Assembly (NCBI GenBank): GCA_029339505.1
Contig: JAQISU010000169.1
Location: 6,192,001 to 6,256,000, forward strand
Source: Unio delphinus
Lineage: Eukaryota > Mollusca > Bivalvia > Unionida > Unionidae
Reading direction: 5' to 3'
DNA length: 64,000 nt
A program made the translations under genes and the position numbers. Of the stretch, positions 26,610 to 62,743 are shown in pieces (position 1 is the stretch's first letter; the number at the start of each line of letters is the position of its first letter). The notes under the pieces are model-generated. The model did not search any database. It saw nothing but the letters and a program-made list of their open reading frames with translations, and had not been told where the DNA came from.

Positions 26610-27940
26610 GTTATGTGTTTATGAACTAGTAGCACAGAAAAAGTGAAAATAACAAGCTTTTGTTAAAATTTAACAAATAATTTATTTCCCTCGAAAATAT
26701 TTTAAAAATGGAAAACATAATTAGTTTTAAGAATCAAATTAAAAAATAATTTAAGAATAATCAACGAATTAAATTACAAAGGTCCTAGTAAAGCATGTTC
26801 TAATATATTCAAGATCGAGTACTGTTGGAAAATCCAAGATGGAAGACGATGACGTATGCTGAAGTTTGTTTTGTGTTCATATATAGTTCCTTGCAGAATC
26901 ACAAGTTTTCACACTCCGGTGTTGGAAATCTGAATAAGATTTTGAAAAACTGTCTTTGTCCAAGAATTTTGCATAAGCACACATAAATATTTTCTAGATT
27001 TACGAATTAATCTTCTAAATTCAAACTGGTCTGAAAAAAGTTAATATGGATTCAAATATTGGTTCCAACAAAAGAAAATAACAACGTCAGATGTAAAAGC
27101 ACAAAACTAACTTTATTTCGCTAAAATAAAGATTATATCGTATTCTAATACGCAGTTTTGAGAAAATCTCCTTATTACGAAATCACAAAGAGGGAATGGA
27201 AGGGTAAGGAATCCCGTGATCGTTTATATCACGAACTCCTAAAATTACCCTGGTGAGGTCCAATCATTTTTACTTTAAGAATAAAAAGTTGTTTCTTTCT
27301 TAATTCACTAGTGCCATCTTGACTTTGACAACAACTAATCATTTTAAAATAAAACTAAAATATGTTTACGTAGGTGCCACTAACCCTAAATCAAGGTCAG
27401 AATCTTAGTCAACATTAACTGTTTACCCAAAAATATTCAGGTCAACCGATTTTCTGAAAAGAAATCATCTTTAGTTAATAAATTTATTTTCCAATAGCAT
27501 GTAATGAAAAACAAATAATTTCAAACTGACAAACAACTAAATTTAAAACACACGCACACACACAGACACGCACACAAACACAGACACAGACAGACACACA
27601 CACACACACATGTTCTAAAACCGAATAGTTAACAAGTTTGTAAGACCAGTTATCATAATGTATAGTATATAGTGGATTTCGTTATAGCATTAAAAAGTTT
27701 CGTAAAATGGACCAAAATCGATTCCAATCTCAACTCAAATTTCTAGAAACAATATACATACAATTGTTATGAATTTCAGTTGTATAGTGATATTTAAGCA
27801 ATATAGTTTTTCTACTTGAAAGAAATATAATTACAAGGAACATGGACGTGTGCTTGACTCTATTACATCACTTCATGGGGTCATTATTTTCGTCAAGAAA
27901 GTAATATTTTGTTTTATTTCTTATTTGTTGTCAATGGGTT
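23787..27940. other. Intergenic left flank of the viral element
   Basis: AT-rich, with a (GT)n tract at about 25,056-25,082, a (CA)/(TA)n tract at 26,528-26,604 and a CA-rich stretch at 27,546-27,611. Short open frames (for example 24,296-24,550 and 26,232-26,471) have no recognisable domains. The last five bases, GGGTT at 27,936-27,940, are the left copy of the presumed target-site duplication. Confidence 0.6.
26528..26604. repeat. (CA)n/(TA)n microsatellite
   Basis: Short CA run followed by about 33 TA units. Confidence 0.93.
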
Positions 27941-28105
27941 AGCAGCAGAGAGGGTGAACAGACCACGATTTCAAGCAAAAATAATGCTTCCTCCGAAATC
28001 TTATTTTAACCAAAAAAAATAAGTCTCCATTTAGCAAACGGAGACTTTACGATTTTTTAATCAATTTTGGTCGCAACGATGTGGTCATCCACCCTCTCTG
28101 CTGCT
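27941..28105 (+). repeat. Left terminal palindrome (T-shaped hairpin)
   Basis: The terminal 16 bases AGCAGCAGAGAGGGTG recur as their complement at 28,090-28,105, extended by GACCAC (27,961-27,966) against GTGGTC (28,081-28,086). Inside that stem are two adjacent small hairpins: CTTATTTT/AAAATAAG at 28,000-28,023, and AAGTCTCC/GGAGACTT at 28,021-28,047 with an 11-nt loop. The layout, one stem with two side arms, resembles a parvovirus-type terminal hairpin. Whether it forms, or acts as an origin, is inference. Confidence 0.75.
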
Positions 28106-28146
28106 TAGTGATTTCAGTTCTGGGTTAACAAAAATAATAAATGATT

Positions 28147-28818
28147 TCAACCAAATATTTGATCGAGTCCGATACGATATCGTGTCCGAGGATCATGTAA
28201 ATTTATTGTTACAAATCCATGCGGGGTTGACTGAGCATGACTAAAGAAATTTTTAAATTGATTGAAGTCCATATCGGAACACCATGTCTGCCAAATATTT
28301 CGTAGCGTATGTGTATCAACGCCGTTAAACACAGCAAGAATATTACAGTTATCTCTGATCACTTTTGGAATCTGAGTGTAGCGTTGAGTGACATATATCA
28401 CATCAGTGTTTTTGTGACGCCCCCGGGAAAATATTCTAGCTGGGTTTTTTTGATTGTCTAACATCACATCGTCGTATACGACTAAATTGTTAATACTCCC
28501 ATCAAGGACATCCACGGATGGCGCCTCGTCAATATCAGTTATAAAATCAATGGTATTCTCACCTTTAATTTCTGATGCATTCTCGTTAAAATCTTTTAAC
28601 ACTTCATAACATCGTTGATCATCTACGCTAGGGGCAATTAAATACAACTTATCCCACTTCATCCATCTCATTATTAAATTGAGCAACAATTGCGTTTTAC
28701 CGGATCCAGATGGCCCGATTATAATTGCACGGATAGAGTTTGGTAGCGCTGCATGATGCTTAACTGGTTCTCTTATTTTAGTCGCTGAAAAATCAATTAT
28801 ATTCATATCTCTATACAT
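28147..28818 (-). CDS. A32/FtsK-HerA-type DNA-packaging ATPase (left arm, intact)
   Basis: 223 residues, reading toward the element end. Walker A GPSGSGKT is at 35-42, Walker B NLVVYDDV at 111-118, and the sensor/arginine region VIYVTQRYTQIPKVIRDN at 140-157. The layout fits the genome-packaging ATPases of Polintons, adintoviruses and nucleocytoplasmic viruses, which pump DNA into capsids using ATP. The length is typical of the short Polinton form. The ATG at 28,818 lies five bases from the divergent ATG at 28,824, so the two genes must share a tight bidirectional promoter or be read from longer transcripts. The right-arm copy is broken by a stop at codon 55. Confidence 0.9.
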   Translation of the reverse strand: MYRDMNIIDFSATKIREPVKHHAALPNSIRAIIIGPSGSGKTQLLLNLIMRWMKWDKLYLIAPSVDDQRCYEVLKDFNENASEIKGENTIDFITDIDEAPSVDVLDGSINNLVVYDDVMLDNQKNPARIFSRGRHKNTDVIYVTQRYTQIPKVIRDNCNILAVFNGVDTHTLRNIWQTWCSDMDFNQFKNFFSHAQSTPHGFVTINLHDPRTRYRIGLDQIFG

Positions 28819-28823
28819 AAATT

Positions 28824-29117
28824 ATGGATCTATATTGTGTGAAGTGTAAAACGCGTACTAGCACAAATGATGTGACGACGGTTACAACTAAAAATAACAG
28901 ATCAGCACTAACTGGTAGATGTGCAACATGTGGTATAAAAAAGTTTAGATTTATTTCTACAAAATCAAAGATTTTACAATCCGGAGATGTTTTAAAAAAA
29001 AACGAGGAGGTGATATCGCAGCCAAATTGGCAAAGCTCCCTGGAACCCCATGGGCAAAGTACCCCGGAGAAAAGCACCTTCCAGGATATAGCTACTGTGG
29101 TCCCGGAACACGATTAG
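28824..29117 (+). CDS. Zinc-ribbon ORF (DUF5679-like), 0-frame part
   Basis: 97 residues in the 0 frame. It starts MDLYCVKCKTRTSTNDV with CVKC at 5-8 and a second pair CATC at about 33-36 in LTGRCATCGIKKFRFIS, the two-knuckle pattern of the small DUF5679-type zinc ribbons of large DNA viruses and Polinton relatives. After residue 56 the frame meets a run of nine A (28,994-29,002, codons TTA AAA AAA AAC). Beyond that the 0 frame gives unremarkable sequence ending at 29,117, while the -1 frame enters a phospholipase domain that has no start codon of its own. The natural product is probably the frameshifted fusion; the role of the ribbon is unknown. Confidence 0.7.
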   Translation: MDLYCVKCKTRTSTNDVTTVTTKNNRSALTGRCATCGIKKFRFISTKSKILQSGDVLKKNEEVISQPNWQSSLEPHGQSTPEKSTFQDIATVVPEHD

Positions 29118-29362
29118 ATATCAGACTTGATGATCAAAATCAACCCCGATCCGGCGAGTATCCGATAAACGCTATTGATAAGGCGTGTCATGCTCATGAT
29201 GTTGCATATAAAAGCAGCAATCTGCAAAACAGGCATCTCGCGAATGTGAAATTAATTCATGCGTTAAATGCTATTCCTGATAAATCTTTTAAAGAAAAGT
29301 TGGCTTCGTGGTTGGTAAAATCAGCTATGAAAGGCAAATTGATGATGGGTGCTGGTAATTAA
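29003..29362 (+). CDS. Parvovirus-like phospholipase A2 domain (left arm)
   Basis: Open from the A9 run to TAA at 29,360-29,362, with no ATG in frame. Key features: the calcium-loop motif YCGPGT at 29,093-29,110, and the catalytic helix block AIDKACHAHDVAY, with the His-Asp dyad at about 29,195-29,200. These are the signatures of the secreted-type PLA2 domain in parvovirus VP1 and some adintovirus-like elements, where it breaches endosomal membranes during entry. It follows the zinc-ribbon ORF in the -1 frame, so it is probably its C-terminal half. The ending lysines and MMGAGN are unusual and may mark the start of a lost downstream region. Both arms carry the same text. Confidence 0.85.
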   Translation, partial: RGGDIAAKLAKLPGTPWAKYPGEKHLPGYSYCGPGTRLDIRLDDQNQPRSGEYPINAIDKACHAHDVAYKSSNLQNRHLANVKLIHALNAIPDKSFKEKLASWLVKSAMKGKLMMGAGN

Positions 29363-29366
29363 TAAT

Positions 29367-30329
29367 ATGGAATCAATTTATTATTCCCCAAGAGGATACT
29401 GGAGGGGTAAATCAGCAGTACATAAACTCGCTAGCGCTGCAAAAGTGAAAAAAACTACAGCGGCGGATTGGTCATCCAAACAGGCACTATGGCAAATTTA
29501 TCTACCACCACCTAAACAAATTCAATTCTCGCATTTTGATGTGACTGCTCCTAATGAAGTTCATCAGGCTGATATATTATTTCTGCCACATGATCGTGGT
29601 TACAAATACGCGTTAACCGTAGTTGATATTGCAAGTCGATACAAAGAAGCAGAACCGTTAAAAACAAAATCAGCCACTGAAGTTGCTTCTGCATTTGAAA
29701 GGATTTATCGACGAGGTCCTCTGCACTGGCCGAATCTATTGCAGGTTGATCCTGGCAAGGAATTTCAGGGTGCAGTGTTATCTACAATGAAACATCATAA
29801 TGTCACCATACGACGAGGGCATACTGCGCTACATCGCGATCAGGCCATTGTAGAACGATTTAATCGGACGATTGCTGAGCGGTTATTTGGATATCAATAC
29901 GCAAAAGAATTCATTCAAGAAAAGCGATCCAGTGAATGGGTTAAAAGATTACCATCTGTGATTACTGCACTGAATAACGAGATTACTAGAACAATCAACA
30001 TGAAACCTATCAACGCGATTAAAAAGAAGTCAATACCCGTACAACCACAAAAAGATTTCCCTAGAAACGCTAGCGTTTCCCAACCAATTCTTGGTAGTAG
30101 TGTCATTGTGAGGTACTTATACGAACCAGGAGAGCTTGAAGGGGGTAGAAAAATGGCTACTGATCCTATTTGGAGCGTCACTACGCATAAGATATCTAGT
30201 ATAACACGATCAACTGGTAGACCAGCAATCTATAAACTGGATTCAACTGCTCCTCAGCGAGGATTTACTCGACAACAACTACAGGTAATTCCCGAGGATA
30301 CTCAATTGCCACCGCATGGTCTTAACTAG
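29367..30329 (+). CDS. Retrovirus-like DDE integrase (left arm)
   Basis: I choose the ATG at 29,367 (MESIYYSPRG...), just past the PLA2 stop, over an in-frame GTG 18 nt upstream. Numbering from that GTG, the rve core has D75 (HQADILFLP), D134 (LQVDPGKEF) and E169 (AIVERFNRT), 34 residues separating the last two. A basic C-terminal part with a chromo/SH3-like stretch follows (VRYLYEPGELEGG...). It would insert linear element DNA into the host genome by strand transfer, producing short target duplications such as the GGGTT seen here. A perfect palindrome GAAACGCTAGCGTTTC lies inside the gene at 30,064-30,079. The stop overlaps the convergent helicase gene by 8 bp. The right-arm copy is identical in translation. 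Confidence 0.92.
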   Translation: MESIYYSPRGYWRGKSAVHKLASAAKVKKTTAADWSSKQALWQIYLPPPKQIQFSHFDVTAPNEVHQADILFLPHDRGYKYALTVVDIASRYKEAEPLKTKSATEVASAFERIYRRGPLHWPNLLQVDPGKEFQGAVLSTMKHHNVTIRRGHTALHRDQAIVERFNRTIAERLFGYQYAKEFIQEKRSSEWVKRLPSVITALNNEITRTINMKPINAIKKKSIPVQPQKDFPRNASVSQPILGSSVIVRYLYEPGELEGGRKMATDPIWSVTTHKISSITRSTGRPAIYKLDSTAPQRGFTRQQLQVIPEDTQLPPHGLN

Positions 30330-31407
30330 CACCCAAGGTGCTGGCACCCCGGCGTCTATTGCACTCAAGACAAGTCAACATCACATTATTTCTGACATGA
30401 CCGAGATTGTTATTTTTTCTGTCTACGGTGAATTGGCGAGGATCCTTATCCGAATACTGCCAACGCATTATACAATTGCAACTCGCGCAGTGATTATTCT
30501 GTTGTTTCTTCAAAGTGATTATTAATTCAGCATCAATATCAAATTCTCGTTGTTTTTTTTTTGTCCTGTTGTTTGTAACCGGAGAGTTTTTTTTATTAAT
30601 GATGCTAACATCAATATCACTTATTGTTGTGTCATTATCATCGCCTGACTCTGTCAGGACAACTCTTCGAAGCTGATTTATTCTTCGTACTCTGGATACT
30701 GCGAGATAGACTAAATTCGACCATTCGATGTGATTATCCACCATCCAAACAATTGTATCCGATATAGTTAATCCCTGTGAAGAATGTATCGTCGCTGCGT
30801 ATCCTAGCGTCCATGGGGATTTATTAGCACGCAATGCATTTTCGACGACTCTGATATCAACCAGCACAATATCATTTAATACGAGAATTTGTTTTTCACT
30901 CTGTCCTGGAATATCAACTTCAATATTCTGCTTTCGTGTATCCGAAGGCCAATAACACAACTGTACTGGAAGTGTTGCAAATTTCTCTTTATGCGTTTCA
31001 AATAACTTCATCTGAAGTGTGTCTCTGACTATTTTTCTACTTGCTACTATCAAATCATTTGGTCTCCACGTTTCCCAGAAATCATTCATGGGAGTTTCTG
31101 AAATTATTTCACGTGCTATTTCGCATTGGATTTTATCCGGTTGTAATCTAATCAGTGCTTTGAACTCGCGTAATTGTTCATCAAGTGATCTATGGTCGGT
31201 ATTAATTTCTTCATAATAGTCTACAGAACCCTTGAGCCATTCATGTGGAGATGCACCGACAAATGGTGGTGGTTGGCCGTGATCCCCGCACATGACGACT
31301 TTTGTGTTTTTGTTTAACAACCACTCAAGAAATGTTTTTAATACATCTAATGACACTGTGCATATTTCATCCCAAATTATGATTTCAGGAATGAATTTAT
31401 CACCCAT
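30322..31407 (-). CDS. SF1 helicase with HNH-like zinc tail (left arm)
   Basis: 361 residues from ATG 31,407, but this start is internal to the family. Walker A lies upstream in the polymerase reading frame, while this part opens with Walker B (IIIWDEIC, D13-E14), motif III GDHGQPPP (41-48), motif V-like GYAATIHSSQGLTISD (202-217) and motif VI NLVYLAVSRVRR (231-242). These make it a RecD/Pif1-like superfamily 1 helicase. The tail has CASC (307-310), TVDRKNNNLGH and CLECN, an HNH/zinc-finger-like end. It is cut from its Walker A part by an in-frame TGA at 31,435-31,437. It differs from the right-arm copy at residues 149 (Q here, P there) and 153 (W here, R there). Confidence 0.85.
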   Translation of the reverse strand: MGDKFIPEIIIWDEICTVSLDVLKTFLEWLLNKNTKVVMCGDHGQPPPFVGASPHEWLKGSVDYYEEINTDHRSLDEQLREFKALIRLQPDKIQCEIAREIISETPMNDFWETWRPNDLIVASRKIVRDTLQMKLFETHKEKFATLPVQLCYWPSDTRKQNIEVDIPGQSEKQILVLNDIVLVDIRVVENALRANKSPWTLGYAATIHSSQGLTISDTIVWMVDNHIEWSNLVYLAVSRVRRINQLRRVVLTESGDDNDTTISDIDVSIINKKNSPVTNNRTKKKQREFDIDAELIITLKKQQNNHCASCNCIMRWQYSDKDPRQFTVDRKNNNLGHVRNNVMLTCLECNRRRGASTLGAS

Positions 31408-31434
31408 ACGCTCAGGAGTCCATTTGTCACCTTT

Positions 31435-31827
31435 TCATCGAAAAAAACTGTGATAAGTGCAAGCATTTACCCCTCGTTGTATCATCTCTCTGGCGAGTCT
31501 GTGAGTCGGTGTTAGTACAATCATGTTAGAAACGCTAGCGTTTCCACGACGAAATAATTCAATTGCACGAGTTGTCTTTCCTGACCCACCACAACCGTTT
31601 AAATAAACTGTCTTGTATCTACATACTGGATCAGATACCGGTGGTGCATTAGAAAATTCTGATTGAATTTCAATACGGTTACAACAAAGATATTTATCAT
31701 CCATGGCAACGTCTGCGGATTCACAATACTCATATAGCATCTCCTTTTTAAATCGCCAACGCCCCCACGCTTCCTCCGGATCTGTGAATGCCGCTACAGC
31801 TGATTTGTACTTATTGTGTATATACAT
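31435..31827 (-). pseudogene. Left-arm polymerase C-terminus with helicase Walker A (frame-broken)
   Basis: After an 11-nt deletion at about 31,815-31,830, the polymerase frame resumes here without its catalytic motif C. The piece holds the polymerase C-terminal region and then the helicase Walker A GCGGSGKTT and HSFF. It ends at a TGA immediately followed, in the same frame, by the helicase ORF. A seven-T run precedes the TGA (six in the right arm). Together with its two neighbours it is the remains of one polymerase-helicase fusion gene. Confidence 0.8.
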
Positions 31828-34129
31828 CGACTCTAACCGCGGTATTAGGAAATCTATTTATCATCGAAAATAGATTAATAGAAGCATAGGCTAGCATTGA
31901 ACTTCTCAAATGTGTGTACTGGGAATTATATCCATCACAGTAGGTAACAACCGTACCTAATTTCTCACCATTGGATAGAAAAGCATCCTTACGGGATACA
32001 AGTTTTCCCTGTTTCATTAAATCCGCTACAATAAAATCGTATTCAGCGACATCTATGATCAACCGCGAAGAGTATTTTGCGTTGTCGTATCGTCCACCCT
32101 GGGTAAATTTACCGATTATTCTTCTTCCGAGATCTTTTGCTTGTTCTTTTTTAATTTCAAATAACTTCTTAGACCAATTCATGATTTGTTCTTCTGGAAA
32201 CTGTTTTCGTAGTTCGCTGATTATACGATCTAGATCGGGTTGTGGTAGCCAAACTTCTTTCTGAGCTCGATAGCATATAATAGCTTCGGAAACAATCAAC
32301 GATATCAGCATGCCACAATCAATCATATATCTCAATAGCACTATTGGCATCCAGTGTTTTTCAGATAGGTGTCTACCGAGCCAAACATAACTACACGGAT
32401 GTAACCCTGTAGCGAGTTCAAATGATATCACACGAGCGAATCCGGTTAAATCAAAATCAGGCAATGGTCCATTAATCGCAACACGAGTCATTTCATGCGT
32501 GGGGTGTCCAAATCGTTTGAAGTATTCAGCGCATTCCCCATACCCGAGAAAACTTCCAGGATAACACGCGGATATATCAATTGAAATCATACCGTCACGA
32601 TGGTATTTTGTATTCCACAGTCCTCCATGACCAAATTCGATGCAACTCAATTTAACGTCCTCGAGAAAATCACTTCGTGTTGGACGCCATGAGTTTTTTT
32701 CTCTTGCGAAGTGAGCTACCACTGATGGAATAGTAAAACTATCCGTCAATAGTTTTTCATGGGAACTCTCCGGTGAAAAATCATTAGCGATTTTTCTCAT
32801 TCTGTTATCTAATTCTTCAACGCGATATAATTCACCATTTGGTCTTACAAATTGATCAAATCCTGATTCGGAACCAGCACTACTAAGTAACCACACTGAC
32901 ACAGGATCATCTTTACACAACGCATGAATAGCATCAAATAATTTCTCTTCATAGAAAACATCCCCGGAAAATTCCCCGGAAAATTTCCGGGGGATATATC
33001 TTACGGTTCTATCTCGTGGAAATATTGTTACTGCAGGTGTCCACGCGTGTTCGTTATGATCAATAATTTGTATTGGAGCCCCTCGCGATTGATATTTCGG
33101 TTCGTATAATACTTCTCCGGTTATTGTTGTTACTGATATTGGGAATTTTAATGATGCTTCTAATTTAGCTATATCAGAAATCTTTGCACCGTGCTGTTTC
33201 ACTGTCAGTTCCCATTCGGTTATTTTCCTACGTCGCAGATCAGTTAGTTTATTTCCTCGGGATGCATTTGTGAAGTGTTCCATTACCCGTGTTGCTACAC
33301 AATTGAGCCTTGACGAAGTCAACGGTGAATATTTCATAGGAGCTAGTTTTGCAATATCGGGTTTATCATTTAACGGATATATCCCATAAACCATTGCTGT
33401 TACGGGATAAGATCTTTCGTAGTATGGTTTGTCAATTCCAGTTAGAATTCCTGGTTTGGAATCTTTACTTACAATGACAGTTTTTTTATCCTTGAGGATT
33501 GGTTCAAATTTATCCCTAATAATCCATTTGCCTTCGACTTCGATAATGAATTTTATTCTGAAAAAATACTTCTGATTGGAATTGCTTTGCTTGAAATCCT
33601 TTGGATTTCCACCTTTGGATTTTCCACCTTTGGATGGAAATTGCTTTGCTTGAAATCCTTTGGATGGAAATTGCTTTGCAATTTCACCAAGGTGTGAAAT
33701 TATCTCAGCTGCTCTTTTATCGTTCATAGTAGCATCGATGATGGGTACATTGACATCTTCATCAATAATTTGAAATGTCGACCAACAGTATGCTGCACCG
33801 TCTCGGTAGAATTCATTAAAACACTCCCTGATTTTACCGAGTATAGTTCTATCACCGATTAGACGTTTTGGTGTATCAGAGACTCTATCGAGATTGAATT
33901 TAGTATTTCTCCAAGGCTTAATTTTCGATAATCTTTGGAACTCCCTATCAAGATTGAATTTAGTATTTTTCCAAGGTTTGATTTTCGATAATCTTTGGAA
34001 CTCCCTATCAAGATTGAATTTAGTATTTTTCCAAGGTTTGATTTTCGATAATCTTTGGAACTCCCTATCAAGATTGAATTTAGTATTTTTCCAGGGCTTA
34101 ATTTTCGATAATCTCTTGAACTCCTCCAT
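31811..34129 (-). pseudogene. Protein-primed-type family B DNA polymerase (left arm, motif C lost)
   Basis: ATG at 34,129 (MEEFKRLSKIKPW); in-frame GTG codons further up overlap the divergent small gene and are unlikely starts. It opens with four 20-residue tandem repeats (EFQRLSKIKPWKNTKFNLDR), continues through a Ser/Lys/Gly-rich linker, and reaches polymerase motif A SIDISACYPGSF and the motif B region DLGRRIIGKFTQ. It then runs off frame at an 11-nt deletion that removes exactly the motif C Thr-Asp-Ser codons. The catalytic Asp is therefore absent and this copy should be dead as a polymerase. The right-arm copy keeps motif C. Confidence 0.87.
33881..34120 (-). repeat. Four 60-bp in-frame tandem repeats (left arm)
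   Basis: Four exact-length 60-bp units encoding a 20-residue repeat at the polymerase N terminus; the outer units vary slightly (KPWKNT versus KPWRNT). Mirror copy at 35,335-35,574. Confidence 0.95.
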
Positions 34130-34171
34130 GTTATAATTAAAACAAGTATTTAAATAGAAAAATATAGTATA
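34130..34171. promoter_or_regulatory. Compact bidirectional promoter candidate (left arm)
   Basis: Only 42 bp separate the divergent starts of the polymerase (34,129, minus) and the Cys-rich gene (34,172, plus). The interval holds the palindromic TATTTAAATA at 34,147-34,156 and a TATA-like AAATATAGTATAAT. A shared early promoter is the natural reading, but untested. Confidence 0.5.
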
Positions 34172-34498
34172 ATGAATCACTGCAAGTGGCTAATGATTGG
34201 ATCTACAACCCCGTGTAACAAATCATGCAGAAGTGAATTCTGTGGGTATCATATGCAAAGCGTGAGAAACGGTTCAAAAGGCCCTCTCCCATGCCTCCAA
34301 TGTGGGGTGGGTGTTAGAGGAAAATCGCAGTTGTGTCTTGCTTGTGGGGGTAAACGATACAGGGAACTAAAACGCTACTATGACAAACGAATCAATGACT
34401 CCGTCATCCTTGATAAAATCAAGGACAAAGTCATAAAAACCCCTCAAGATTATATCCAGAGATTTATAATTAAAGCAGATAATAAATTAGACAAGTAG
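34172..34498 (+). CDS. Cys-rich zinc-finger-like protein (left arm)
   Basis: 108 residues. Two Cys clusters: CKWLMIGSTTPCNKSCRSEFC with GYH after it (4-27), and PCLQCGVGVRGKSQLCLACG (40-59), each able to bind zinc. A basic and then charged helical C terminus follows (YYDKRINDSVILDKIKDK). I do not recognise a named family. It is identical in both arms and sits between the polymerase promoter and the HNH gene, pointing at the latter. A DNA-binding or regulatory role is only inference. Confidence 0.7.
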   Translation: MNHCKWLMIGSTTPCNKSCRSEFCGYHMQSVRNGSKGPLPCLQCGVGVRGKSQLCLACGGKRYRELKRYYDKRINDSVILDKIKDKVIKTPQDYIQRFIIKADNKLDK

Positions 34499-34511
34499 TA
34501 TTATTATACAA

Positions 34512-34985
34512 ATGAGCCAAGATTTCAGACCTCACCCAGTGCTTGCTAATTACGAAGCTTCTAGTGATGGTGTTGTCAGGCACCGCAGACTCAAAGAACC
34601 GGTTGGATATCTGAATAATATGGGATATTTGATGTTTTCAGCTGGGAGGAAGAAGTATCTCTGTCACAGAGCCATCTATGAAGCATTTTACGGATTAATC
34701 GAAGACGGCCTTGTGATTGATCACATAAATGGCGTGAAGACTGATAATTGTCTTGGGAATCTTCAAGCCGTCTCGCAGCGCGATAACCTTTTAAAAAGCA
34801 ACGCTGGTAGGCACGCAAAACATCAAATATCCCATATTATTCAGATATCCAACCGGTTCTTTGAGTCTGCGGTGCCTGACAACACCATCACTAGAAGCTT
34901 CGTAATTAGCAAGCACTGGGTGAGGTCTGAAATCTTGGCTCATTTGTATAATAATACTACTTGTCTAATTTATTATCTGCTTTAA
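34512..34985 (+). CDS. HNH homing-type endonuclease, chimeric at the palindrome loop
   Basis: 157 codons from ATG 34,512, 14 bp after the Cys-rich gene. Residues 1-42 lie in the left arm (a NUMOD4-like start, NYEASSDGVVRHRR...). Residues 43-102 lie in the unique 178-bp loop and contain the HNH core: H52 in CHRAIYEAFYG, then VIDHINGVKTDNCLGNLQAV with the D70-H71 pair and the following Asn residues. From residue 103 the frame runs into the reverse complement of the gene's own start, so the tail is meaningless. The core looks intact, hence some activity is possible, but the normal C terminus is lost. Such enzymes are common selfish nucleases in phages and large DNA viruses. Confidence 0.8.
   Translation: MSQDFRPHPVLANYEASSDGVVRHRRLKEPVGYLNNMGYLMFSAGRKKYLCHRAIYEAFYGLIEDGLVIDHINGVKTDNCLGNLQAVSQRDNLLKSNAGRHAKHQISHIIQISNRFFESAVPDNTITRSFVISKHWVRSEILAHLYNNTTCLIYYLL
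34639..34816 (+). other. 178-bp unique loop of the giant palindrome
   Basis: The arms are complementary up to ...GATGTTTT at 34,638 and from AAAACATC at 34,817. The 178 bp between have no inverted partner and encode the HNH catalytic core. This is the fold-back junction. Confidence 0.93.
34791..34943 (-). pseudogene. Truncated HNH gene copy (right arm)
   Basis: Starts with the same 42 residues as the plus-strand HNH gene, then crosses into the antisense of the loop, adds eight unrelated residues and stops at 34,791. It lacks the whole catalytic core. It shows directly that the right arm was copied from the left-arm sequence only as far as the loop. Confidence 0.85.
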
Positions 34986-35283
34986 TTATAAATCTCTGGA
35001 TATAATCTTGAGGGGTTTTTATGACTTTGTCCTTGATTTTATCAAGGATGACGGAGTCATTGATTCGTTTGTCATAGTAGCGTTTTAGTTCCCTGTATCG
35101 TTTACCCCCACAAGCAAGACACAACTGCGATTTTCCTCTAACACCCACCCCACATTGGAGGCATGGGAGAGGGCCTTTTGAACCGTTTCTCACGCTTTGC
35201 ATATGATACCCACAGAATTCACTTCTGCATGATTTGTTACACGGGGTTGTAGATCCAATCATTAGCCACTTGCAGTGATTCAT
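34957..35283 (-). CDS. Cys-rich zinc-finger-like protein (right arm)
   Basis: Exact mirror of the left-arm gene at 34,172-34,498, with identical 108-residue translation and the same two Cys clusters. Divergent from the polymerase across the 42-bp interval. Confidence 0.7.
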   Translation of the reverse strand: MNHCKWLMIGSTTPCNKSCRSEFCGYHMQSVRNGSKGPLPCLQCGVGVRGKSQLCLACGGKRYRELKRYYDKRINDSVILDKIKDKVIKTPQDYIQRFIIKADNKLDK

Positions 35284-35325
35284 TATACTATATTTTTCTA
35301 TTTAAATACTTGTTTTAATTATAAC
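35284..35325. promoter_or_regulatory. Compact bidirectional promoter candidate (right arm)
   Basis: Mirror of 34,130-34,171, with TATTTAAATA at 35,299-35,308 between the divergent starts at 35,283 and 35,326. Confidence 0.5.
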
Positions 35326-38088
35326 ATGGAGGAGTTCAAGAGATTATCGAAAATTAAGCCCTGGAAAAATACTAAATTCAATCTTGATAGGGAGTTCCAA
35401 AGATTATCGAAAATCAAACCTTGGAAAAATACTAAATTCAATCTTGATAGGGAGTTCCAAAGATTATCGAAAATCAAACCTTGGAAAAATACTAAATTCA
35501 ATCTTGATAGGGAGTTCCAAAGATTATCGAAAATTAAGCCTTGGAGAAATACTAAATTCAATCTCGATAGAGTCTCTGATACACCAAAACGTCTAATCGG
35601 TGATAGAACTATACTCGGTAAAATCAGGGAGTGTTTTAATGAATTCTACCGAGACGGTGCAGCATACTGTTGGTCGACATTTCAAATTATTGATGAAGAT
35701 GTCAATGTACCCATCATCGATGCTACTATGAACGATAAAAGAGCAGCTGAGATAATTTCACACCTTGGTGAAATTGCAAAGCAATTTCCATCCAAAGGAT
35801 TTCAAGCAAAGCAATTTCCATCCAAAGGTGGAAAATCCAAAGGTGGAAATCCAAAGGATTTCAAGCAAAGCAATTCCAATCAGAAGTATTTTTTCAGAAT
35901 AAAATTCATTATCGAAGTCGAAGGCAAATGGATTATTAGGGATAAATTTGAACCAATCCTCAAGGATAAAAAAACTGTCATTGTAAGTAAAGATTCCAAA
36001 CCAGGAATTCTAACTGGAATTGACAAACCATACTACGAAAGATCTTATCCCGTAACAGCAATGGTTTATGGGATATATCCGTTAAATGATAAACCCGATA
36101 TTGCAAAACTAGCTCCTATGAAATATTCACCGTTGACTTCGTCAAGGCTCAATTGTGTAGCAACACGGGTAATGGAACACTTCACAAATGCATCCCGAGG
36201 AAATAAACTAACTGATCTGCGACGTAGGAAAATAACCGAATGGGAACTGACAGTGAAACAGCACGGTGCAAAGATTTCTGATATAGCTAAATTAGAAGCA
36301 TCATTAAAATTCCCAATATCAGTAACAACAATAACCGGAGAAGTATTATACGAACCGAAATATCAATCGCGAGGGGCTCCAATACAAATTATTGATCATA
36401 ACGAACACGCGTGGACACCTGCAGTAACAATATTTCCACGAGATAGAACCGTAAGATATATCCCCCGGAAATTTTCCGGGGAATTTTCCGGGGATGTTTT
36501 CTATGAAGAGAAATTATTTGATGCTATTCATGCGTTGTGTAAAGATGATCCTGTGTCAGTGTGGTTACTTAGTAGTGCTGGTTCCGAATCAGGATTTGAT
36601 CAATTTGTAAGACCAAATGGTGAATTATATCGCGTTGAAGAATTAGATAACAGAATGAGAAAAATCGCTAATGATTTTTCACCGGAGAGTTCCCATGAAA
36701 AACTATTGACGGATAGTTTTACTATTCCATCAGTGGTAGCTCACTTCGCAAGAGAAAAAAACTCATGGCGTCCAACACGAAGTGATTTTCTCGAGGACGT
36801 TAAATTGAGTTGCATCGAATTTGGTCATGGAGGACTGTGGAATACAAAATACCATCGTGACGGTATGATTTCAATTGATATATCCGCGTGTTATCCTGGA
36901 AGTTTTCTCGGGTATGGGGAATGCGCTGAATACTTCAAACGATTTGGACACCCCACGCATGAAATGACTCGTGTTGCGATTAATGGACCATTGCCTGATT
37001 TTGATTTAACCGGATTCGCTCGTGTGATATCATTTGAACTCGCTACAGGGTTACATCCGTGTAGTTATGTTTGGCTCGGTAGACACCTATCTGAAAAACA
37101 CTGGATGCCAATAGTGCTATTGAGATATATGATTGATTGTGGCATGCTGATATCGTTGATTGTTTCCGAAGCTATTATATGCTATCGAGCTCAGAAAGAA
37201 GTTTGGCTACCACAACCCGATCTAGATCGTATAATCAGCGAACTACGAAAACAGTTTCCAGAAGAACAAATCATGAATTGGTCTAAGAAGTTATTTGAAA
37301 TTAAAAAAGAACAAGCAAAAGATCTCGGAAGAAGAATAATCGGTAAATTTACCCAGGGTGGACGATACGACAACGCAAAATACTCTTCGCGGTTGATCAT
37401 AGATGTCGCTGAATACGATTTTATTGTAGCGGATTTAATGAAACAGGGAAAACTTGTATCCCGTAAGGATGCTTTTCTATCCAATGGTGAGAAATTAGGT
37501 ACGGTTGTTACCTACTGTGATGGATATAATTCCCAGTACACACATTTGAGAAGTTCAATGCTAGCCTATGCTTCTATTAATCTATTTTCGATGATAAATA
37601 GATTTCCTAATACCGCGGTTAGAGTAGCCACTGATTCGATGTATATACACAATAAGTACAAATCAGCTGTAGCGGCATTCACAGATCCGGAGGAAGCGTG
37701 GGGGCGTTGGCGATTTAAAAAGGAGATGCTATATGAGTATTGTGAATCCGCAGACGTTGCCATGGATGATAAATATCTTTGTTGTAACCGTATTGAAATT
37801 CAATCAGAATTTTCTAATGCACCACCGGTATCTGATCCAGTATGTAGATACAAGACAGTTTATTTAAACGGTTGTGGTGGGTCAGGAAAGACAACTCGTG
37901 CAATTGAATTATTTCGTCGTGGAAACGCTAGCGTTTCTAACATGATTGTACTAACACCGACTCACAGACTCGCCAGAGAGATGATACAACGAGGGGTAAA
38001 TGCTTGCACTTATCACAGTTTTTTCGATGAAAAGGTGACAAATGGACTCCTGAGCGTATGGGTGATAAATTCATTCCTGAAATCATAA
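35326..38088 (+). CDS. Family B DNA polymerase running into helicase Walker A (right arm, polymerase intact)
   Basis: ATG 35,326 gives 920 residues; numbering below is from an upstream GTG at 35,275. The N terminus has four 20-residue repeats and a KQFPSKG-rich linker. Polymerase motif A SIDISACYPGSF has D535 and Y540-P541, the motif B region DLGRRIIGKFTQ is near 683-694, and motif C VATDSMY has D787. Helicase Walker A GCGGSGKTT follows at 867-874. I see no clear 3'-5' exonuclease motifs. The frame then leaves the helicase frame after a six-T run at about 38,020 (seven in the left arm) and stops at 38,088. The polymerase part looks complete and presumably copies the linear genome, perhaps by protein priming as in Polintons. 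The fusion to an SF1 helicase is unusual for that group. Confidence 0.9.
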   Translation: MEEFKRLSKIKPWKNTKFNLDREFQRLSKIKPWKNTKFNLDREFQRLSKIKPWKNTKFNLDREFQRLSKIKPWRNTKFNLDRVSDTPKRLIGDRTILGKIRECFNEFYRDGAAYCWSTFQIIDEDVNVPIIDATMNDKRAAEIISHLGEIAKQFPSKGFQAKQFPSKGGKSKGGNPKDFKQSNSNQKYFFRIKFIIEVEGKWIIRDKFEPILKDKKTVIVSKDSKPGILTGIDKPYYERSYPVTAMVYGIYPLNDKPDIAKLAPMKYSPLTSSRLNCVATRVMEHFTNASRGNKLTDLRRRKITEWELTVKQHGAKISDIAKLEASLKFPISVTTITGEVLYEPKYQSRGAPIQIIDHNEHAWTPAVTIFPRDRTVRYIPRKFSGEFSGDVFYEEKLFDAIHALCKDDPVSVWLLSSAGSESGFDQFVRPNGELYRVEELDNRMRKIANDFSPESSHEKLLTDSFTIPSVVAHFAREKNSWRPTRSDFLEDVKLSCIEFGHGGLWNTKYHRDGMISIDISACYPGSFLGYGECAEYFKRFGHPTHEMTRVAINGPLPDFDLTGFARVISFELATGLHPCSYVWLGRHLSEKHWMPIVLLRYMIDCGMLISLIVSEAIICYRAQKEVWLPQPDLDRIISELRKQFPEEQIMNWSKKLFEIKKEQAKDLGRRIIGKFTQGGRYDNAKYSSRLIIDVAEYDFIVADLMKQGKLVSRKDAFLSNGEKLGTVVTYCDGYNSQYTHLRSSMLAYASINLFSMINRFPNTAVRVATDSMYIHNKYKSAVAAFTDPEEAWGRWRFKKEMLYEYCESADVAMDDKYLCCNRIEIQSEFSNAPPVSDPVCRYKTVYLNGCGGSGKTTRAIELFRRGNASVSNMIVLTPTHRLAREMIQRGVNACTYHSFFDEKVTNGLLSVWVINSFLKS
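35335..35574 (+). repeat. Four 60-bp in-frame tandem repeats (right arm)
   Basis: Units beginning near 35,341, 35,401, 35,461 and 35,521, each exactly 60 bp; mirror of 33,881-34,120. Confidence 0.95.
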
Positions 38089-39143
38089 TTTGGGATGAAA
38101 TATGCACAGTGTCATTAGATGTATTAAAAACATTTCTTGAGTGGTTGTTAAACAAAAACACAAAAGTCGTCATGTGCGGGGATCACGGCCAACCACCACC
38201 ATTTGTCGGTGCATCTCCACATGAATGGCTCAAGGGTTCTGTAGACTATTATGAAGAAATTAATACCGACCATAGATCACTTGATGAACAATTACGCGAG
38301 TTCAAAGCACTGATTAGATTACAACCGGATAAAATCCAATGCGAAATAGCACGTGAAATAATTTCAGAAACTCCCATGAATGATTTCTGGGAAACGTGGA
38401 GACCAAATGATTTGATAGTAGCAAGTAGAAAAATAGTCAGAGACACACTTCAGATGAAGTTATTTGAAACGCATAAAGAGAAATTTGCAACACTTCCAGT
38501 ACCGTTGTGTTATAGGCCTTCGGATACACGAAAGCAGAATATTGAAGTTGATATTCCAGGACAGAGTGAAAAACAAATTCTCGTATTAAATGATATTGTG
38601 CTGGTTGATATCAGAGTCGTCGAAAATGCATTGCGTGCTAATAAATCCCCATGGACGCTAGGATACGCAGCGACGATACATTCTTCACAGGGATTAACTA
38701 TATCGGATACAATTGTTTGGATGGTGGATAATCACATCGAATGGTCGAATTTAGTCTATCTCGCAGTATCCAGAGTACGAAGAATAAATCAGCTTCGAAG
38801 AGTTGTCCTGACAGAGTCAGGCGATGATAATGACACAACAATAAGTGATATTGATGTTAGCATCATTAATAAAAAAAACTCTCCGGTTACAAACAACAGG
38901 ACAAAAAAAAAACAACGAGAATTTGATATTGATGCTGAATTAATAATCACTTTGAAGAAACAACAGAATAATCACTGCGCGAGTTGCAATTGTATAATGC
39001 GTTGGCAGTATTCGGATAAGGATCCTCGCCAATTCACCGTAGACAGAAAAAATAACAATCTCGGTCATGTCAGAAATAATGTGATGTTGACTTGTCTTGA
39101 GTGCAATAGACGCCGGGGTGCCAGCACCTTGGGTGCTAGTTAA
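38058..39143 (+). CDS. SF1 helicase with HNH-like zinc tail (right arm)
   Basis: 361 residues overlapping the end of the polymerase frame by 31 nt in another frame. It has the same motifs as the left copy: IIIWDEIC, GDHGQPPP, TIHSSQGLTISD, NLVYLAVSRVRR, then CASC and CLECN at the tail. It lacks its own Walker A, which is encoded at the end of the upstream polymerase ORF, so a working enzyme needs the two frames joined. The same TGA present in the left arm lies in this frame, upstream of the ATG. The stop overlaps the convergent integrase gene by 8 bp. Confidence 0.83.
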   Translation: MGDKFIPEIIIWDEICTVSLDVLKTFLEWLLNKNTKVVMCGDHGQPPPFVGASPHEWLKGSVDYYEEINTDHRSLDEQLREFKALIRLQPDKIQCEIAREIISETPMNDFWETWRPNDLIVASRKIVRDTLQMKLFETHKEKFATLPVPLCYRPSDTRKQNIEVDIPGQSEKQILVLNDIVLVDIRVVENALRANKSPWTLGYAATIHSSQGLTISDTIVWMVDNHIEWSNLVYLAVSRVRRINQLRRVVLTESGDDNDTTISDIDVSIINKKNSPVTNNRTKKKQREFDIDAELIITLKKQQNNHCASCNCIMRWQYSDKDPRQFTVDRKNNNLGHVRNNVMLTCLECNRRRGASTLGAS

Positions 39144-40098
39144 GACCATGCGGTGGCAATTGAGTATCCTCGGGAATTACCTGTAGTTGTTGTCGAGTAA
39201 ATCCTCGCTGAGGAGCAGTTGAATCCAGTTTATAGATTGCTGGTCTACCAGTTGATCGTGTTATACTAGATATCTTATGCGTAGTGACGCTCCAAATAGG
39301 ATCAGTAGCCATTTTTCTACCCCCTTCAAGCTCTCCTGGTTCGTATAAGTACCTCACAATGACACTACTACCAAGAATTGGTTGGGAAACGCTAGCGTTT
39401 CTAGGGAAATCTTTTTGTGGTTGTACGGGTATTGACTTCTTTTTAATCGCGTTGATAGGTTTCATGTTGATTGTTCTAGTAATCTCGTTATTCAGTGCAG
39501 TAATCACAGATGGTAATCTTTTAACCCATTCACTGGATCGCTTTTCTTGAATGAATTCTTTTGCGTATTGATATCCAAATAACCGCTCAGCAATCGTCCG
39601 ATTAAATCGTTCTACAATGGCCTGATCGCGATGTAGCGCAGTATGCCCTCGTCGTATGGTGACATTATGATGTTTCATTGTAGATAACACTGCACCCTGA
39701 AATTCCTTGCCAGGATCAACCTGCAATAGATTCGGCCAGTGCAGAGGACCTCGTCGATAAATCCTTTCAAATGCAGAAGCAACTTCAGTGGCTGATTTTG
39801 TTTTTAACGGTTCTGCTTCTTTGTATCGACTTGCAATATCAACTACGGTTAACGCGTATTTGTAACCACGATCATGTGGCAGAAATAATATATCAGCCTG
39901 ATGAACTTCATTAGGAGCAGTCACATCAAAATGCGAGAATTGAATTTGTTTAGGTGGTGGTAGATAAATTTGCCATAGTGCCTGTTTGGATGACCAATCC
40001 GCCGCTGTAGTTTTTTTCACTTTTGCAGCGCTAGCGAGTTTATGTACTGCTGATTTACCCCTCCAGTATCCTCTTGGGGAATAATAAATTGATTCCAT
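39136..40098 (-). CDS. Retrovirus-like DDE integrase (right arm)
   Basis: Mirror of the left-arm integrase with identical translation, including D75, D134 and E169 (numbered from the in-frame GTG at 40,116) and the palindrome at 39,386-39,401. ATG chosen at 40,098. No break was seen, so the element carries two intact integrase genes. Confidence 0.92.
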   Translation of the reverse strand: MESIYYSPRGYWRGKSAVHKLASAAKVKKTTAADWSSKQALWQIYLPPPKQIQFSHFDVTAPNEVHQADILFLPHDRGYKYALTVVDIASRYKEAEPLKTKSATEVASAFERIYRRGPLHWPNLLQVDPGKEFQGAVLSTMKHHNVTIRRGHTALHRDQAIVERFNRTIAERLFGYQYAKEFIQEKRSSEWVKRLPSVITALNNEITRTINMKPINAIKKKSIPVQPQKDFPRNASVSQPILGSSVIVRYLYEPGELEGGRKMATDPIWSVTTHKISSITRSTGRPAIYKLDSTAPQRGFTRQQLQVIPEDTQLPPHGLN

Positions 40099-40102
40099 AT
40101 TA

Positions 40103-40462
40103 TTAATTACCAGCACCCATCATCAATTTGCCTTTCATAGCTGATTTTACCAACCACGAAGCCAACTTTTCTTTAAAAGATTTATCAGGAATAGCATTTA
40201 ACGCATGAATTAATTTCACATTCGCGAGATGCCTGTTTTGCAGATTGCTGCTTTTATATGCAACATCATGAGCATGACACGCCTTATCAATAGCGTTTAT
40301 CGGATACTCGCCGGATCGGGGTTGATTTTGATCATCAAGTCTGATATCTAATCGTGTTCCGGGACCACAGTAGCTATATCCTGGAAGGTGCTTTTCTCCG
40401 GGGTACTTTGCCCATGGGGTTCCAGGGAGCTTTGCCAATTTGGCTGCGATATCACCTCCTCG
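40103..40462 (-). CDS. Parvovirus-like phospholipase A2 domain (right arm)
   Basis: Mirror of the left-arm domain with the same YCGPGT loop and CHAHD dyad. It again lacks an ATG and is again reached by a -1 step at a nine-A run (nine T on the plus strand at about 40,463-40,471). Confidence 0.85.
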   Translation of the reverse strand, partial: RGGDIAAKLAKLPGTPWAKYPGEKHLPGYSYCGPGTRLDIRLDDQNQPRSGEYPINAIDKACHAHDVAYKSSNLQNRHLANVKLIHALNAIPDKSFKEKLASWLVKSAMKGKLMMGAGN

Positions 40463-40641
40463 TTTTTTTTTAAAACATCTCCGGATTGTAAAATCTTTGA
40501 TTTTGTAGAAATAAATCTAAACTTTTTTATACCACATGTTGCACATCTACCAGTTAGTGCTGATCTGTTATTTTTAGTTGTAACCGTCGTCACATCATTT
40601 GTGCTAGTACGCGTTTTACACTTCACACAATATAGATCCAT
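40348..40641 (-). CDS. Zinc-ribbon ORF (DUF5679-like), right arm
   Basis: Identical in translation to the left-arm ORF at 28,824-29,117, with the same CVKC and CATC pairs and the same slippery A run leading to the PLA2 frame. Divergent from the ATPase copy, starts five bases apart. Confidence 0.7.
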   Translation of the reverse strand: MDLYCVKCKTRTSTNDVTTVTTKNNRSALTGRCATCGIKKFRFISTKSKILQSGDVLKKNEEVISQPNWQSSLEPHGQSTPEKSTFQDIATVVPEHD

Positions 40642-40646
40642 AATTT

Positions 40647-41318
40647 ATGTATAGAGATATGAATATAATTGATTTTTCAGCGACTAAAATAAGAGAACCA
40701 GTTAAGCATCATGCAGCGCTACCAAACTCTATCCGTGCAATTATAATCGGGCCATCTGGATCCGGTAAAACGCAATTGTTGCTCAATTTAATAATGAGAT
40801 GGATGAAGTAGGATAAGTTGTATTTAATTGCCCCTAGCGTAGATGATCAACGATGTTATGAAGTGTTAAAAGATTTTAACGAGAATGCATCAGAAATTAA
40901 AGGTGAGAATACCATTGATTTTATAACTGATATTGACGAGGCGCCATCCGTGGATGACCTTGATGGGAGTATTAACAATTTAGTCGTATACGACGATGTG
41001 ATGTTAGACAATCAAAAAAACCCAGCTAGAATATTTTCCCGGGGGCGTCACAAAAACACTGATGTGATATATGTCACTCAACGCTACACTCAGATTCCAA
41101 AAGTGATCAGAGATAACTGTAATATTCTTGCTGTGTTTAACGGCGTTGATACACATACGCTACGAAATATTTGGCAGACATGGTGTTCCGATATGGACTT
41201 CAATCAATTTAAAAATTTCTTTAGTCATGCTCAGTCAACCCCGCATGGATTTGTAACAATAAATTTACATGATCCTCGGACACGATATCGTATCGGACTC
41301 GATCAAATATTTGGTTGA
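40647..41318 (+). pseudogene. A32-type packaging ATPase (right arm, nonsense at codon 55)
   Basis: Same 223-codon gene as the left arm, but TAG at 40,809-40,811 replaces Trp55, just after Walker A (GPSGSGKT). Codon 104 also differs (Asp here, Val in the left arm). The part after the stop keeps Walker B, but without Walker A it cannot bind ATP properly. The left-arm copy is intact. Confidence 0.9.
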
Positions 41319-41359
41319 AATCATTTATTATTTTTGTTAACCCAGAACTGAAATCACTA

Positions 41360-41524
41360 AGCAGCAGAGAGGGTGGATGACCACATCGTTGCGACCAAAA
41401 TTGATTAAAAAATCGTAAAGTCTCCGTTTGCTAAATGGAGACTTATTTTTTTTGGTTAAAATAAGATTTCGGAGGAAGCATTATTTTTGCTTGAAATCGT
41501 GGTCTGTTCACCCTCTCTGCTGCT
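41360..41524 (-). repeat. Right terminal palindrome (T-shaped hairpin)
   Basis: Exact mirror of 27,941-28,105, bounded by AGCAGCAGAGAGGGTG at 41,360-41,375 and its complement at 41,509-41,524, with the same two internal side hairpins. Confidence 0.75.
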
Positions 41525-41529
41525 GGGTT

Positions 41530-50597: not shown

Positions 50598-50768
50598 AGG
50601 AAATAATCCTATTCAACTTGAAACATTCGTGTCACAGCCAGTGGTGTCATTGATTGATGGATATTGGACCTATCCCTACTACGACTGTGGAGGAGGAGAA
50701 ATTTGGATGGTCACCTATTCATCTCCGATATTCTTTCGCAGCTTTGACAACGATTCTATTGCATTCAA
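50598..50768 (+). CDS. Gene 2 exon: Cache-domain C-terminal segment
   Basis: 171 nt between tatgtag and GTAATT. It reads VSLIDGYWTYPYYDCGGG then EIWMVTYSSPIFF, parallel to gene 1 exon 916-1086. A (CT)n tract starts only 35 bp into the following intron. Confidence 0.85.
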
Positions 50769-52149: not shown

Positions 52150-52204
52150 ATAAGTCGGATGCAATAGAACCCCAATAACAGAAATTTAAAATCTTGAATG
52201 TTAT

Positions 52205-52305
52205 AATTCTAGTTGTGATATCATAGTGTTCGGGGCCGTGGTATATGACGTATTTATAGTATATATATATACGGCCCCGAACACTATGACATCACAACTA
52301 GAATT
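52205..52305. repeat. 35-bp inverted repeat with 31-nt loop
   Basis: AATTCTAGTTGTGATATCAT... at 52,205-52,239 is repeated in inverted orientation at 52,271-52,305 with a single mismatch. The GC-rich inner end is CGGGGCCGT. It could be a small fold-back (MITE-like) insertion; no clear target duplication was found. Confidence 0.85.
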
Positions 52306-52608
52306 AGAGAATGCTAAACTCAAGAGATAGTGTTCGGGAATTATTACTAGACGTGTAGGAATGTTTAAGATCATCATACATCTATCACAACTTAAATATG
52401 GAAGACCTATCTATATAGAAATGGTTTTACATATATCGTTTTTATTTGTTGTTTTTCATCTGTTGTGCTTTAATTTCTGTTTATATTTATTCCTTACTCC
52501 TCTATTCGTCGTCGCCAGTCTTTAAAAAAATGTATTAATGAAATGTAGGTTGGGTTGCAAGAATAGTTATGGTGGCAACTTGTTTGTTTCTTCGTCAACT
52601 TCTGGCAG

Positions 52609-62575: not shown

Positions 62576-62743
62576 GGATTGGCTGAAACTATGATGACGT
62601 AAATCAACAGCTGTATGAAATTCATAATCGGTGTACGTCATGTTTACTTAGTTACGTTTGGTTCGCGCCTTGGTTACGTCAAACAATCGCGGTGTGATTT
62701 GTAATAGTCGTAACAAAGCATTACTTTCGCTGTCTAATCAATT

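What the first reader, a model, noticed from the sequence alone, without database searches (positions are those of the whole stretch)
27941..41524. Giant palindromic viral element: a snap-back genome caught in a chromosome
Seen: two 6.7-kb arms of virus-like genes mirror each other almost perfectly around a 178-bp unique loop, and the junction cuts an HNH gene. Known: linear dsDNA genomes such as adenovirus can yield fold-back deletion derivatives in which one genome end is duplicated inversely and the rest is lost. Inference: a replicating Polinton/adintovirus-like genome folded back at 34,638/34,817, gave a defective head-to-head molecule with two copies of its replication, packaging and integration genes and none of its capsid genes, and this molecule was then integrated. 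I know of no integrated Polinton-like element described in this form.
Basis: partly seen in the sequence, partly recalled or inferred. Interest (0 to 1): 0.95.

Follow-up and report, generated by a model that had tools for sequence, protein, structure and literature searches.

The report
Integrated snap-back genome of Polinton-like virus
In what looks like an animal chromosome sits a mirror-image, capsid-less derivative of a virus-like element that also has normal copies elsewhere in the same genome, best explained by its DNA having folded back on itself during replication and then being inserted the way normal copies are.

Summary
The palindrome is real: two arms (27,941-34,638; 34,817-41,524; 99.76% identical) flank a 178-bp loop. 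It lies in a 2.5-Gb assembly, probably of an animal. Pieces of six other copies were examined: all six run collinearly through the end of the arm and the loop, then enter unique DNA instead of the mirror. Four had both ends located: 16.88-16.91 kb, ~195-bp TIRs, 5-bp TSDs (one imperfect). The one right half scanned carries a full HNH gene and a double-jelly-roll capsid gene, cut or missing in the palindrome. At the breakpoint the normal copies have an 8-bp inverted repeat, GATGTTTT...AAAACATC, exact in five of six: where a truncated strand's 3' end would snap back and self-prime. The palindrome has the family's kind of TSD (GGGTT), so it was probably integrated as a linear molecule. Its junction occurs once in the assembly. 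The element is a Tlr1-type Polinton-like virus (pPolB-SF1 helicase-HNH replicase) rather than a shown adintovirus; all eleven ends examined have a terminal hairpin. The replicase is broken in both arms; integrase frames are open.

The parts
27936..27940 (.). Left target-site duplication GGGTT
   Evidence: 5-bp rule of the family from other copies
27941..34638 (+). Left arm, matches the left part of normal 16.9-kb copies
27941..28135 (+). Left terminal inverted repeat, about 195 bp (limit taken from left/right comparison in other copies)
27941..28105 (+). Terminal hairpin: 16-bp perfect outer stem from the first base; DNA fold -39.6 kcal/mol, z -9.35
28147..28818 (-). A32-like packaging ATPase, left arm
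   Evidence: Pox_A32 3.3e-11
28824..29117 (+). DUF5679 protein
   Evidence: 9.3e-13
29027..29362 (+). Phospholipase A2-like domain (PF08398)
   Evidence: 1.8e-10
29349..30329 (+). Retrovirus-like (rve) integrase, frame open
   Evidence: 5.5e-9
30322..31407 (-). C-terminal piece of the replicase: SF1 helicase C part plus endonuclease VII/HNH-like tail
31435..31827 (-). SF1 helicase N piece, left arm; ends at an in-frame stop that both arms have; a change private to both arms, absent from the six other copies, lies in it
31811..34180 (-). pPolB piece of the replicase, left arm, cut by an 11-bp deletion found only in this arm
   Evidence: fold from relative P0001
33885..34124 (-). Four tandem 60-bp units at the replicase N-terminus
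34172..34498 (+). Small Cys-rich ORF, no family found
34512..34985 (+). HNH_3 homing-endonuclease-like gene cut by the fold-back (normal copies: 166 aa)
34631..34638 (+). GATGTTTT, left half of the 8-bp inverted repeat at the fold-back
34639..34816 (+). Single-copy 178-bp loop (HNH core)
34817..34824 (+). AAAACATC, second half of the inverted repeat; last bases shared with normal copies
34817..41524 (-). Right arm, inverted copy of the left arm
34957..35283 (-). Small Cys-rich ORF, right arm
35275..38088 (+). pPolB and start of the SF1 helicase, right arm; 1-bp indel in a homopolymer run found only in this arm shifts the frame
38058..39143 (+). C-terminal replicase piece, right arm
39136..40116 (-). 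rve integrase, right arm, frame open
40103..40438 (-). Phospholipase A2-like domain, right arm
40348..40641 (-). DUF5679 protein, right arm
40818..41318 (+). Packaging ATPase, right arm; open frame shortened at its N-terminus by a change found only in this arm
41360..41524 (-). Right terminal hairpin (copy of the left one)
41525..41529 (.). Right target-site duplication GGGTT

Best explanation
A linear genome of an endogenous Polinton-like virus (16.9 kb, ~195-bp TIRs) was being copied outside the chromosome. A strand that began at the left end and stopped in the HNH gene folded back: its 3' AAAACATC paired with GATGTTTT 178 nt upstream and primed synthesis back to the left terminus. After one more round this became a double-stranded palindrome with a left terminus at both sides and without the right-hand ~10 kb, capsid gene included. 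An rve integrase (its own or one supplied in trans) inserted it with a 5-bp TSD. It then decayed in place. Shown: palindrome, normal copies, inverted repeat at the breakpoint, TSD, loss of the capsid half, arm-specific changes. Inferred: extrachromosomal state, self-priming by a strand end (a template switch at the same repeat would look the same), origins in the ends, integrase action.
For: Inverted arms with 178-bp loop. Six of six normal copies examined match through window 34,824 and are then unique. The 8-bp inverted repeat is exact in five of six of them and one base off in the sixth. Both ends of the palindrome are the family terminus AGCAGC...GCTGCT with a 5-bp TSD; of four copies with both ends located three have a perfect 5-bp TSD and the fourth matches 4 of 5. 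Right half of L011: DJR capsid protein at 4.6e-20 and a 166-aa HNH. The junction string occurs once in the assembly, up to 2 mismatches. Arm-specific changes: left 3 substitutions and an 11-bp deletion, right 1 substitution and a 1-bp indel. Snap-back genomes, symmetric or with a loop, are one of four major molecule categories in AAV (PMC8235507, passages).
Against: No reads or free DNA were seen; only one such locus was found, and the genome-wide left-tag count did not complete. The arm plus loop holds 70 pairs of complementary 8-mers 20-400 nt apart, overlaps and the terminal stem counted, so such repeats are common, although one lying exactly at the breakpoint is not expected. TIRs within a copy are nearly identical for ~195 bp, so a later exchange inside a TIR leaves no mark; two changes inside the TIR are shared by both window ends and by none of nine other ends, which fits either view. 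Twelve private changes are shared by both arms; they fit mutations before the fold-back but also later gene conversion between the arms.
Confidence: 0.76

Rival explanations
1. Post-integration change: a normal copy inserted here, later suffered a fold-back inversion at the 8-bp repeat during chromosomal replication or repair, and the broken end was resolved by recombination between the copied left TIR and the original right TIR.
For: Short inverted repeats can seed chromosomal fold-backs (recalled). TIRs are nearly identical within a copy for ~195 bp, so resolution inside them would be invisible and would keep the original TSD.
Against: Needs two events, the second ending exactly in a 195-bp target; the pre-integration route needs a single fold-back and ordinary insertion.
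Confidence: 0.1
2. Two truncated linear molecules were joined tail to tail by end joining before integration, at the same positions.
For: Gives the same anatomy; microhomology-mediated joining could use the same 8 bases.
Against: The 8-bp inverted repeat at the exact breakpoint fits intrastrand snap-back directly. Arms share 12 private changes against 6 arm-specific ones, as expected of one template, though sister molecules would share them too.
Confidence: 0.1
3. Assembly artefact.
For: Long inverted repeats are difficult to assemble; no reads could be checked.
Against: Unrelated flanks, a 5-bp TSD that follows the family rule, arm-specific differences including an 11-bp deletion, inside an 8-Mb contig.
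Confidence: 0.03
4. The palindrome is the normal form of the element.
For: None found.
Against: Six of six other copies examined are not palindromic; of the 40 scored matches (6,541 candidates) only the window's two lie close together; the junction string occurs once.
Confidence: 0.01

Closest known systems
AAV snap-back genomes (asymmetric SBG), PMC8235507 (passages)
   Same: Self-complementary molecule holding one genome part twice around a loop; the other part is lost; hairpin-forming ends (recalled for AAV); replicates with help in trans.
   Different: AAV is a small parvovirus with a Rep protein; those genomes were read from virions. Here it is a derivative of a ~17-kb DJR-capsid element with its own polymerase, fixed in a chromosome with a TSD.
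Adenovirus head-to-head fold-back defective genomes (recalled, no call)
   Same: Linear dsDNA genome, one end duplicated inversely, capsid genes lost.
   Different: Adenoviruses have no integrase (PMC11071308 passages) and their ends are not known to me to form such hairpins.
Tlr1-type Polinton-like viruses and transpovirons (PMC11071308, PMC12721341; passages)
   Same: pPolB fused to a C-terminal SF1 helicase with a C-terminal homing nuclease (HNH or GIY-YIG), polymerase motif C lacking the first Asp; for Tlr1 also rve integrase, packaging ATPase and capsid genes.
   Different: Here probably in an animal, with about a thousand right-end tags in the genome, a PLA2 gene and terminal hairpins; this copy is palindromic and capsid-less.
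Polintons/Mavericks and adintoviruses
   Same: rve integrase, packaging ATPase, DJR capsid, TIR, short TSD. PLA2-type lipases are reported in some Polintons (PMC4642659 passages).
   Different: Their PolB is not the helicase-fused kind; the adintovirus-defining N-terminal OTU domain and hexon similarity were not tested.

Membership tests
Snap-back defective genome | One genome end present twice in inverted order around a loop, rest lost | tested here: met
Snap-back defective genome | Full-length parent genomes exist | tested here: met
   Four copies with both ends located, 16.88-16.91 kb by coordinates; whether any works was not examined
Snap-back defective genome | Breakpoint at a short inverted repeat in the parent | tested here: met
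   exact in 5 of 6 copies, one base off in 1
Snap-back defective genome | Replicates as free DNA and interferes with the parent | not testable with these tools
   no reads or experiments
Tlr1-type Polinton-like virus | pPolB-SF1 helicase fusion | tested here: met
Tlr1-type Polinton-like virus | Motif C without the first Asp | tested here: met
   A-T-D-S in the right-arm ORF and in most relatives that cover it; P0001 has A-I-D-S. Criterion from PMC11071308 passages
Tlr1-type Polinton-like virus | DJR major capsid protein | tested here: met
   PF21738 4.6e-20 in normal copy L011; no significant PHROG or PDB sequence match; absent from the palindrome
Polinton/Maverick | rve integrase, A32 ATPase, TIR, short TSD | tested here: met
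   TSD is 5 bp
Polinton/Maverick | Adenain-like protease | tested here: inconclusive
   Peptidase_C5 E 0.007, below the cut-off
Polinton/Maverick | PolB not fused to a helicase | tested here: not met
Adintovirus | PolB with N-terminal OTU and hexon recognisable by BLASTP | not tested
   no reference sequences in session; definition from PMC11071296 section 16
Parvovirus | Terminal hairpin | tested here: met
   predicted fold only; outer stem in 11 of 11 ends
Parvovirus | HUH/SF3 Rep | tested here: inconclusive
   no such Pfam hit in the 10 references or the 10 ORFs of L011; shorter ORFs and the last ~2 kb before the right end were not scanned

The most novel reading that the evidence does not exclude
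Animals carry a Polinton-like virus with parvovirus-style terminal hairpins whose replication yields self-complementary snap-back genomes as a regular defective class. Its integrase can install these in the germ line, where read-through of the centre would give a long hairpin RNA (467-bp stem over 34,172-34,638 / 34,817-35,283, 178-nt loop) that could feed small-RNA silencing of the many normal copies: an endogenous defective-interfering genome.
Probability: 0.12. Interest if true: 0.93.

Novelty: new variant of a known kind. Interest (0 to 1): 0.77.

Why it matters
Polintons and their kin are mostly known from integrated copies; how and where their DNA replicates is largely inferred (my recall of the field). 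A snap-back genome is a product expected of a linear, end-initiated, strand-displacing replication cycle, and here one is preserved next to its parents with the breakpoint readable to the base. If right, defective genomes of this virus type arise and can reach the germ line, and scanning genomes for such palindromes would count replication errors. The terminal hairpin adds a testable feature of how the ends may be copied.

Tried and rejected
Rejected: native palindrome; two nested insertions (no element end or second TSD at the junction); a palindrome made by an HNH insertion into a palindromic centre (the first 42 HNH codons lie inside both arms). My first reading of the junction as having no microhomology was wrong: only comparison with the normal copies showed the 8-bp repeat.

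Led nowhere: IMG/VR scans with integrase, replicase, ATPase and the terminal hairpin gave no relatives (one search used a gap range that excluded the real 133-nt spacing and was repeated). Phage records had no ATPase relative; for P0001 the 20 of 32 records listed gave only its helicase part against Dda-like helicases, and for the HNH piece there were 516 records, each under 60% identity. PDB sequence searches with the left-arm pol piece, the integrase and the capsid protein found nothing. Best Foldseek viral match of the P0001 model is an unnamed entry, H6WBE3, at low TM-score. Rfam: none at gathering; one weak match on the TIR below gathering, taken as chance. The host species could not be named. 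Genome-wide searches for the HNH piece and the TIR, and counts of the left tag and of the normal junction, did not complete.

Literature: 'Polinton' with 'palindrom' gave 44 papers, of which I saw the listing of 20; 'Maverick / inverted duplication / endogenous viral element / head-to-head' gave one paper, in whose abstract and passages I saw no such palindrome; some searches were seen as listings. That none is in print is only as strong as these searches. Krupovic 2016 (PMC5499653) and Starrett 2021 (PMC8502044) are not held.

Full report
Observation. One long BLASTN match in the window joins 27,941-34,638 to 41,524-34,817 in inverted order at 99.762%. The arms differ by four substitutions, a 1-bp indel and an 11-bp indel; the loop is 178 bp. 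The flanks are unrelated. The element starts AGCAGC and ends GCTGCT, and GGGTT stands on both sides; the longest direct repeat across the two edges is TGGGTTAG, 8 bp. The host is probably an animal: the assembly has 2.5 Gb, and three ORFs of the window match the GPR158/179 extracellular domain, though below Pfam's cut-off (E 2.4e-5 to 8.9e-5); two of them also match a bacterial-type PDC sensor domain above its cut-off. I recall that the GPR158 ectodomain is of that fold.

Normal copies. The genome search first answered: 40 of 6,541 candidates for window 30,000-32,000 were scored, 95-100% identical, some over part of the query. Only the window's own two matches lie close together; the next nearest pair on one contig is 810 kb apart. 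I fetched pieces of six of the 38 other places, the ones ranked best. In all six the piece follows the window through the end of the arm and the loop to 34,824 and then continues in sequence that the window lacks. Five of these right-hand pieces align with the sixth (L011) for the rest of their 9 kb, 97.6-99.1% over the main blocks, with the last ~0.6 kb of L014 at 82%. The left end falls at window 27,939-27,941 in five of six; the sixth (C256) matches at only 81% from 27,987 and its end was not resolved. Right ends were fetched for four of six, and all four have the TIR. From these coordinates I reckon 16,911, 16,880, 16,892 and 16,894 bp. Left and right TIRs agree for about 195 bp. TSDs are GTTTA, AGTGT and AGATA, perfect, and TAACC/TAACT with one mismatch. 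The right half of L011 holds a 166-aa HNH gene with a NUMOD1 match just below cut-off, a DJR capsid protein (PF21738, 4.6e-20, residues 205-390), and a weak adenovirus-protease match (0.007, below cut-off). L013 also has the 166-aa HNH, but the frame at the place of the capsid gene is split in two there; the others were not scanned. A 30-nt tag next to the right end occurs 1,021 times with up to three mismatches, against none for the reversed control, so the family is abundant.

The breakpoint. Five of six normal copies read AAAACATC directly after the loop, the sixth GAAACATC; all six read GATGTTTT before the loop; the spacing is 178 nt in five and 177 in one. In the window, AAAACATC is followed not by the parent's CCAAGGG but by the mirror of the arm. 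The two words are an 8-bp inverted repeat in the parent. This is what a strand copied rightwards from the left end would leave if its 3' end paired with its own sequence 178 nt back and was extended to the left terminus. Pairs of complementary 8-mers with 20-400 nt between them number 70 in this stretch, overlaps and the terminal stem counted, so they are available; what speaks for the mechanism is that one lies exactly at the junction. The junction string occurs once in the assembly with up to two mismatches.

The ends. The first 165 nt fold on themselves: a perfect 16-bp stem from the very first base, with inner arms, -39.6 kcal/mol against -13.5 (sd 2.8) for shuffles, none of 200 reaching it. 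Four of 1,161 scanned windows fold at least as well, the left end itself among them; two of the four are the element's ends and two lie at a hairpin near 52.2 kb. The 16-bp stem is perfect in all eleven ends examined, nine from other copies and the two here; the predicted inner arms vary somewhat. This resembles a parvovirus ITR; that it acts as one is not shown.

Decay and age. Over 5,023 alignment columns, the left arm alone has 3 substitutions and the 11-bp deletion, the right arm alone 1 substitution and a 1-bp indel, and both arms share 11 substitutions and one indel that none of six other copies has. One of the shared changes lies at 31,435, in the in-frame stop of the helicase part. So the parent strand was already damaged before it was doubled, in which case its replication needed help in trans, or the change was spread by gene conversion between the arms. 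I cannot tell these apart. The palindrome looks young within the family: four arm-specific substitutions over the two arms in this stretch, against 8-24 private substitutions in five of the other copies and 122 in L009; gene conversion between the arms could also keep them alike.

Interpretation. Pre-integration snap-back followed by ordinary integration explains these facts with the fewest steps. The main rivals are an inversion of a resident copy resolved inside the TIR, which the TIRs are too alike to exclude, and end joining of two truncated molecules. What it works like: AAV snap-back genomes (PMC8235507, passages) and, from recall, adenovirus fold-back genomes. What it is: a defective derivative of a Tlr1-type Polinton-like virus, probably of an animal; adintovirus membership was not tested. 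Novelty: the kind (snap-back defective genome) is known; an integrated one of this virus type, with its parents and breakpoint in view, I did not find in my searches.

Noticed in passing
27941-28105 and 41360-41524: Terminal hairpin with a 16-bp stem, present in all eleven ends of the family that were examined; parvovirus-ITR-like ends on an element that also has a DJR capsid gene and a PLA2-like gene.
   Followed up: partly
33885-34124 and 35331-35570: Four tandem 60-bp units repeat the first ~20 codons of the replicase.
   Followed up: no
genome G000: A tag beside the right end of the family occurs 1,021 times: a large family with many copies at 95-99% identity in one arm segment.
   Followed up: partly
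L001:673-2805: A 3,152-bp contig filed under a Diapherotrites archaeon MAG encodes a replicase relative (41%); perhaps a misbinned element.
   Followed up: no
proteins P0021, P0028, P0033, P0042: Arbuscular mycorrhizal fungi encode relatives of this pPolB-helicase; they form one clade in the tree.
   Followed up: partly
951-1053 and 50633-50735: Two related exon-like stretches, 74% alike, on either side of the element, in ORFs with weak GPR158/179 domain matches: tandem paralogues or duplicated exons.
   Followed up: no
62738-63964: ORF with STPR peptide repeats (PF21107 8.3e-13), perhaps from a mobile element.
   Followed up: no
52204-52306: Imperfect inverted repeat with a 19-bp perfect arm, one of the strongest hairpins of the window besides the element ends.
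   Followed up: no
17895-19419 and 45464-46917: Two copies of a repeat, 71-85% alike, with fragments that look retrotransposon-like by eye only.
   Followed up: no
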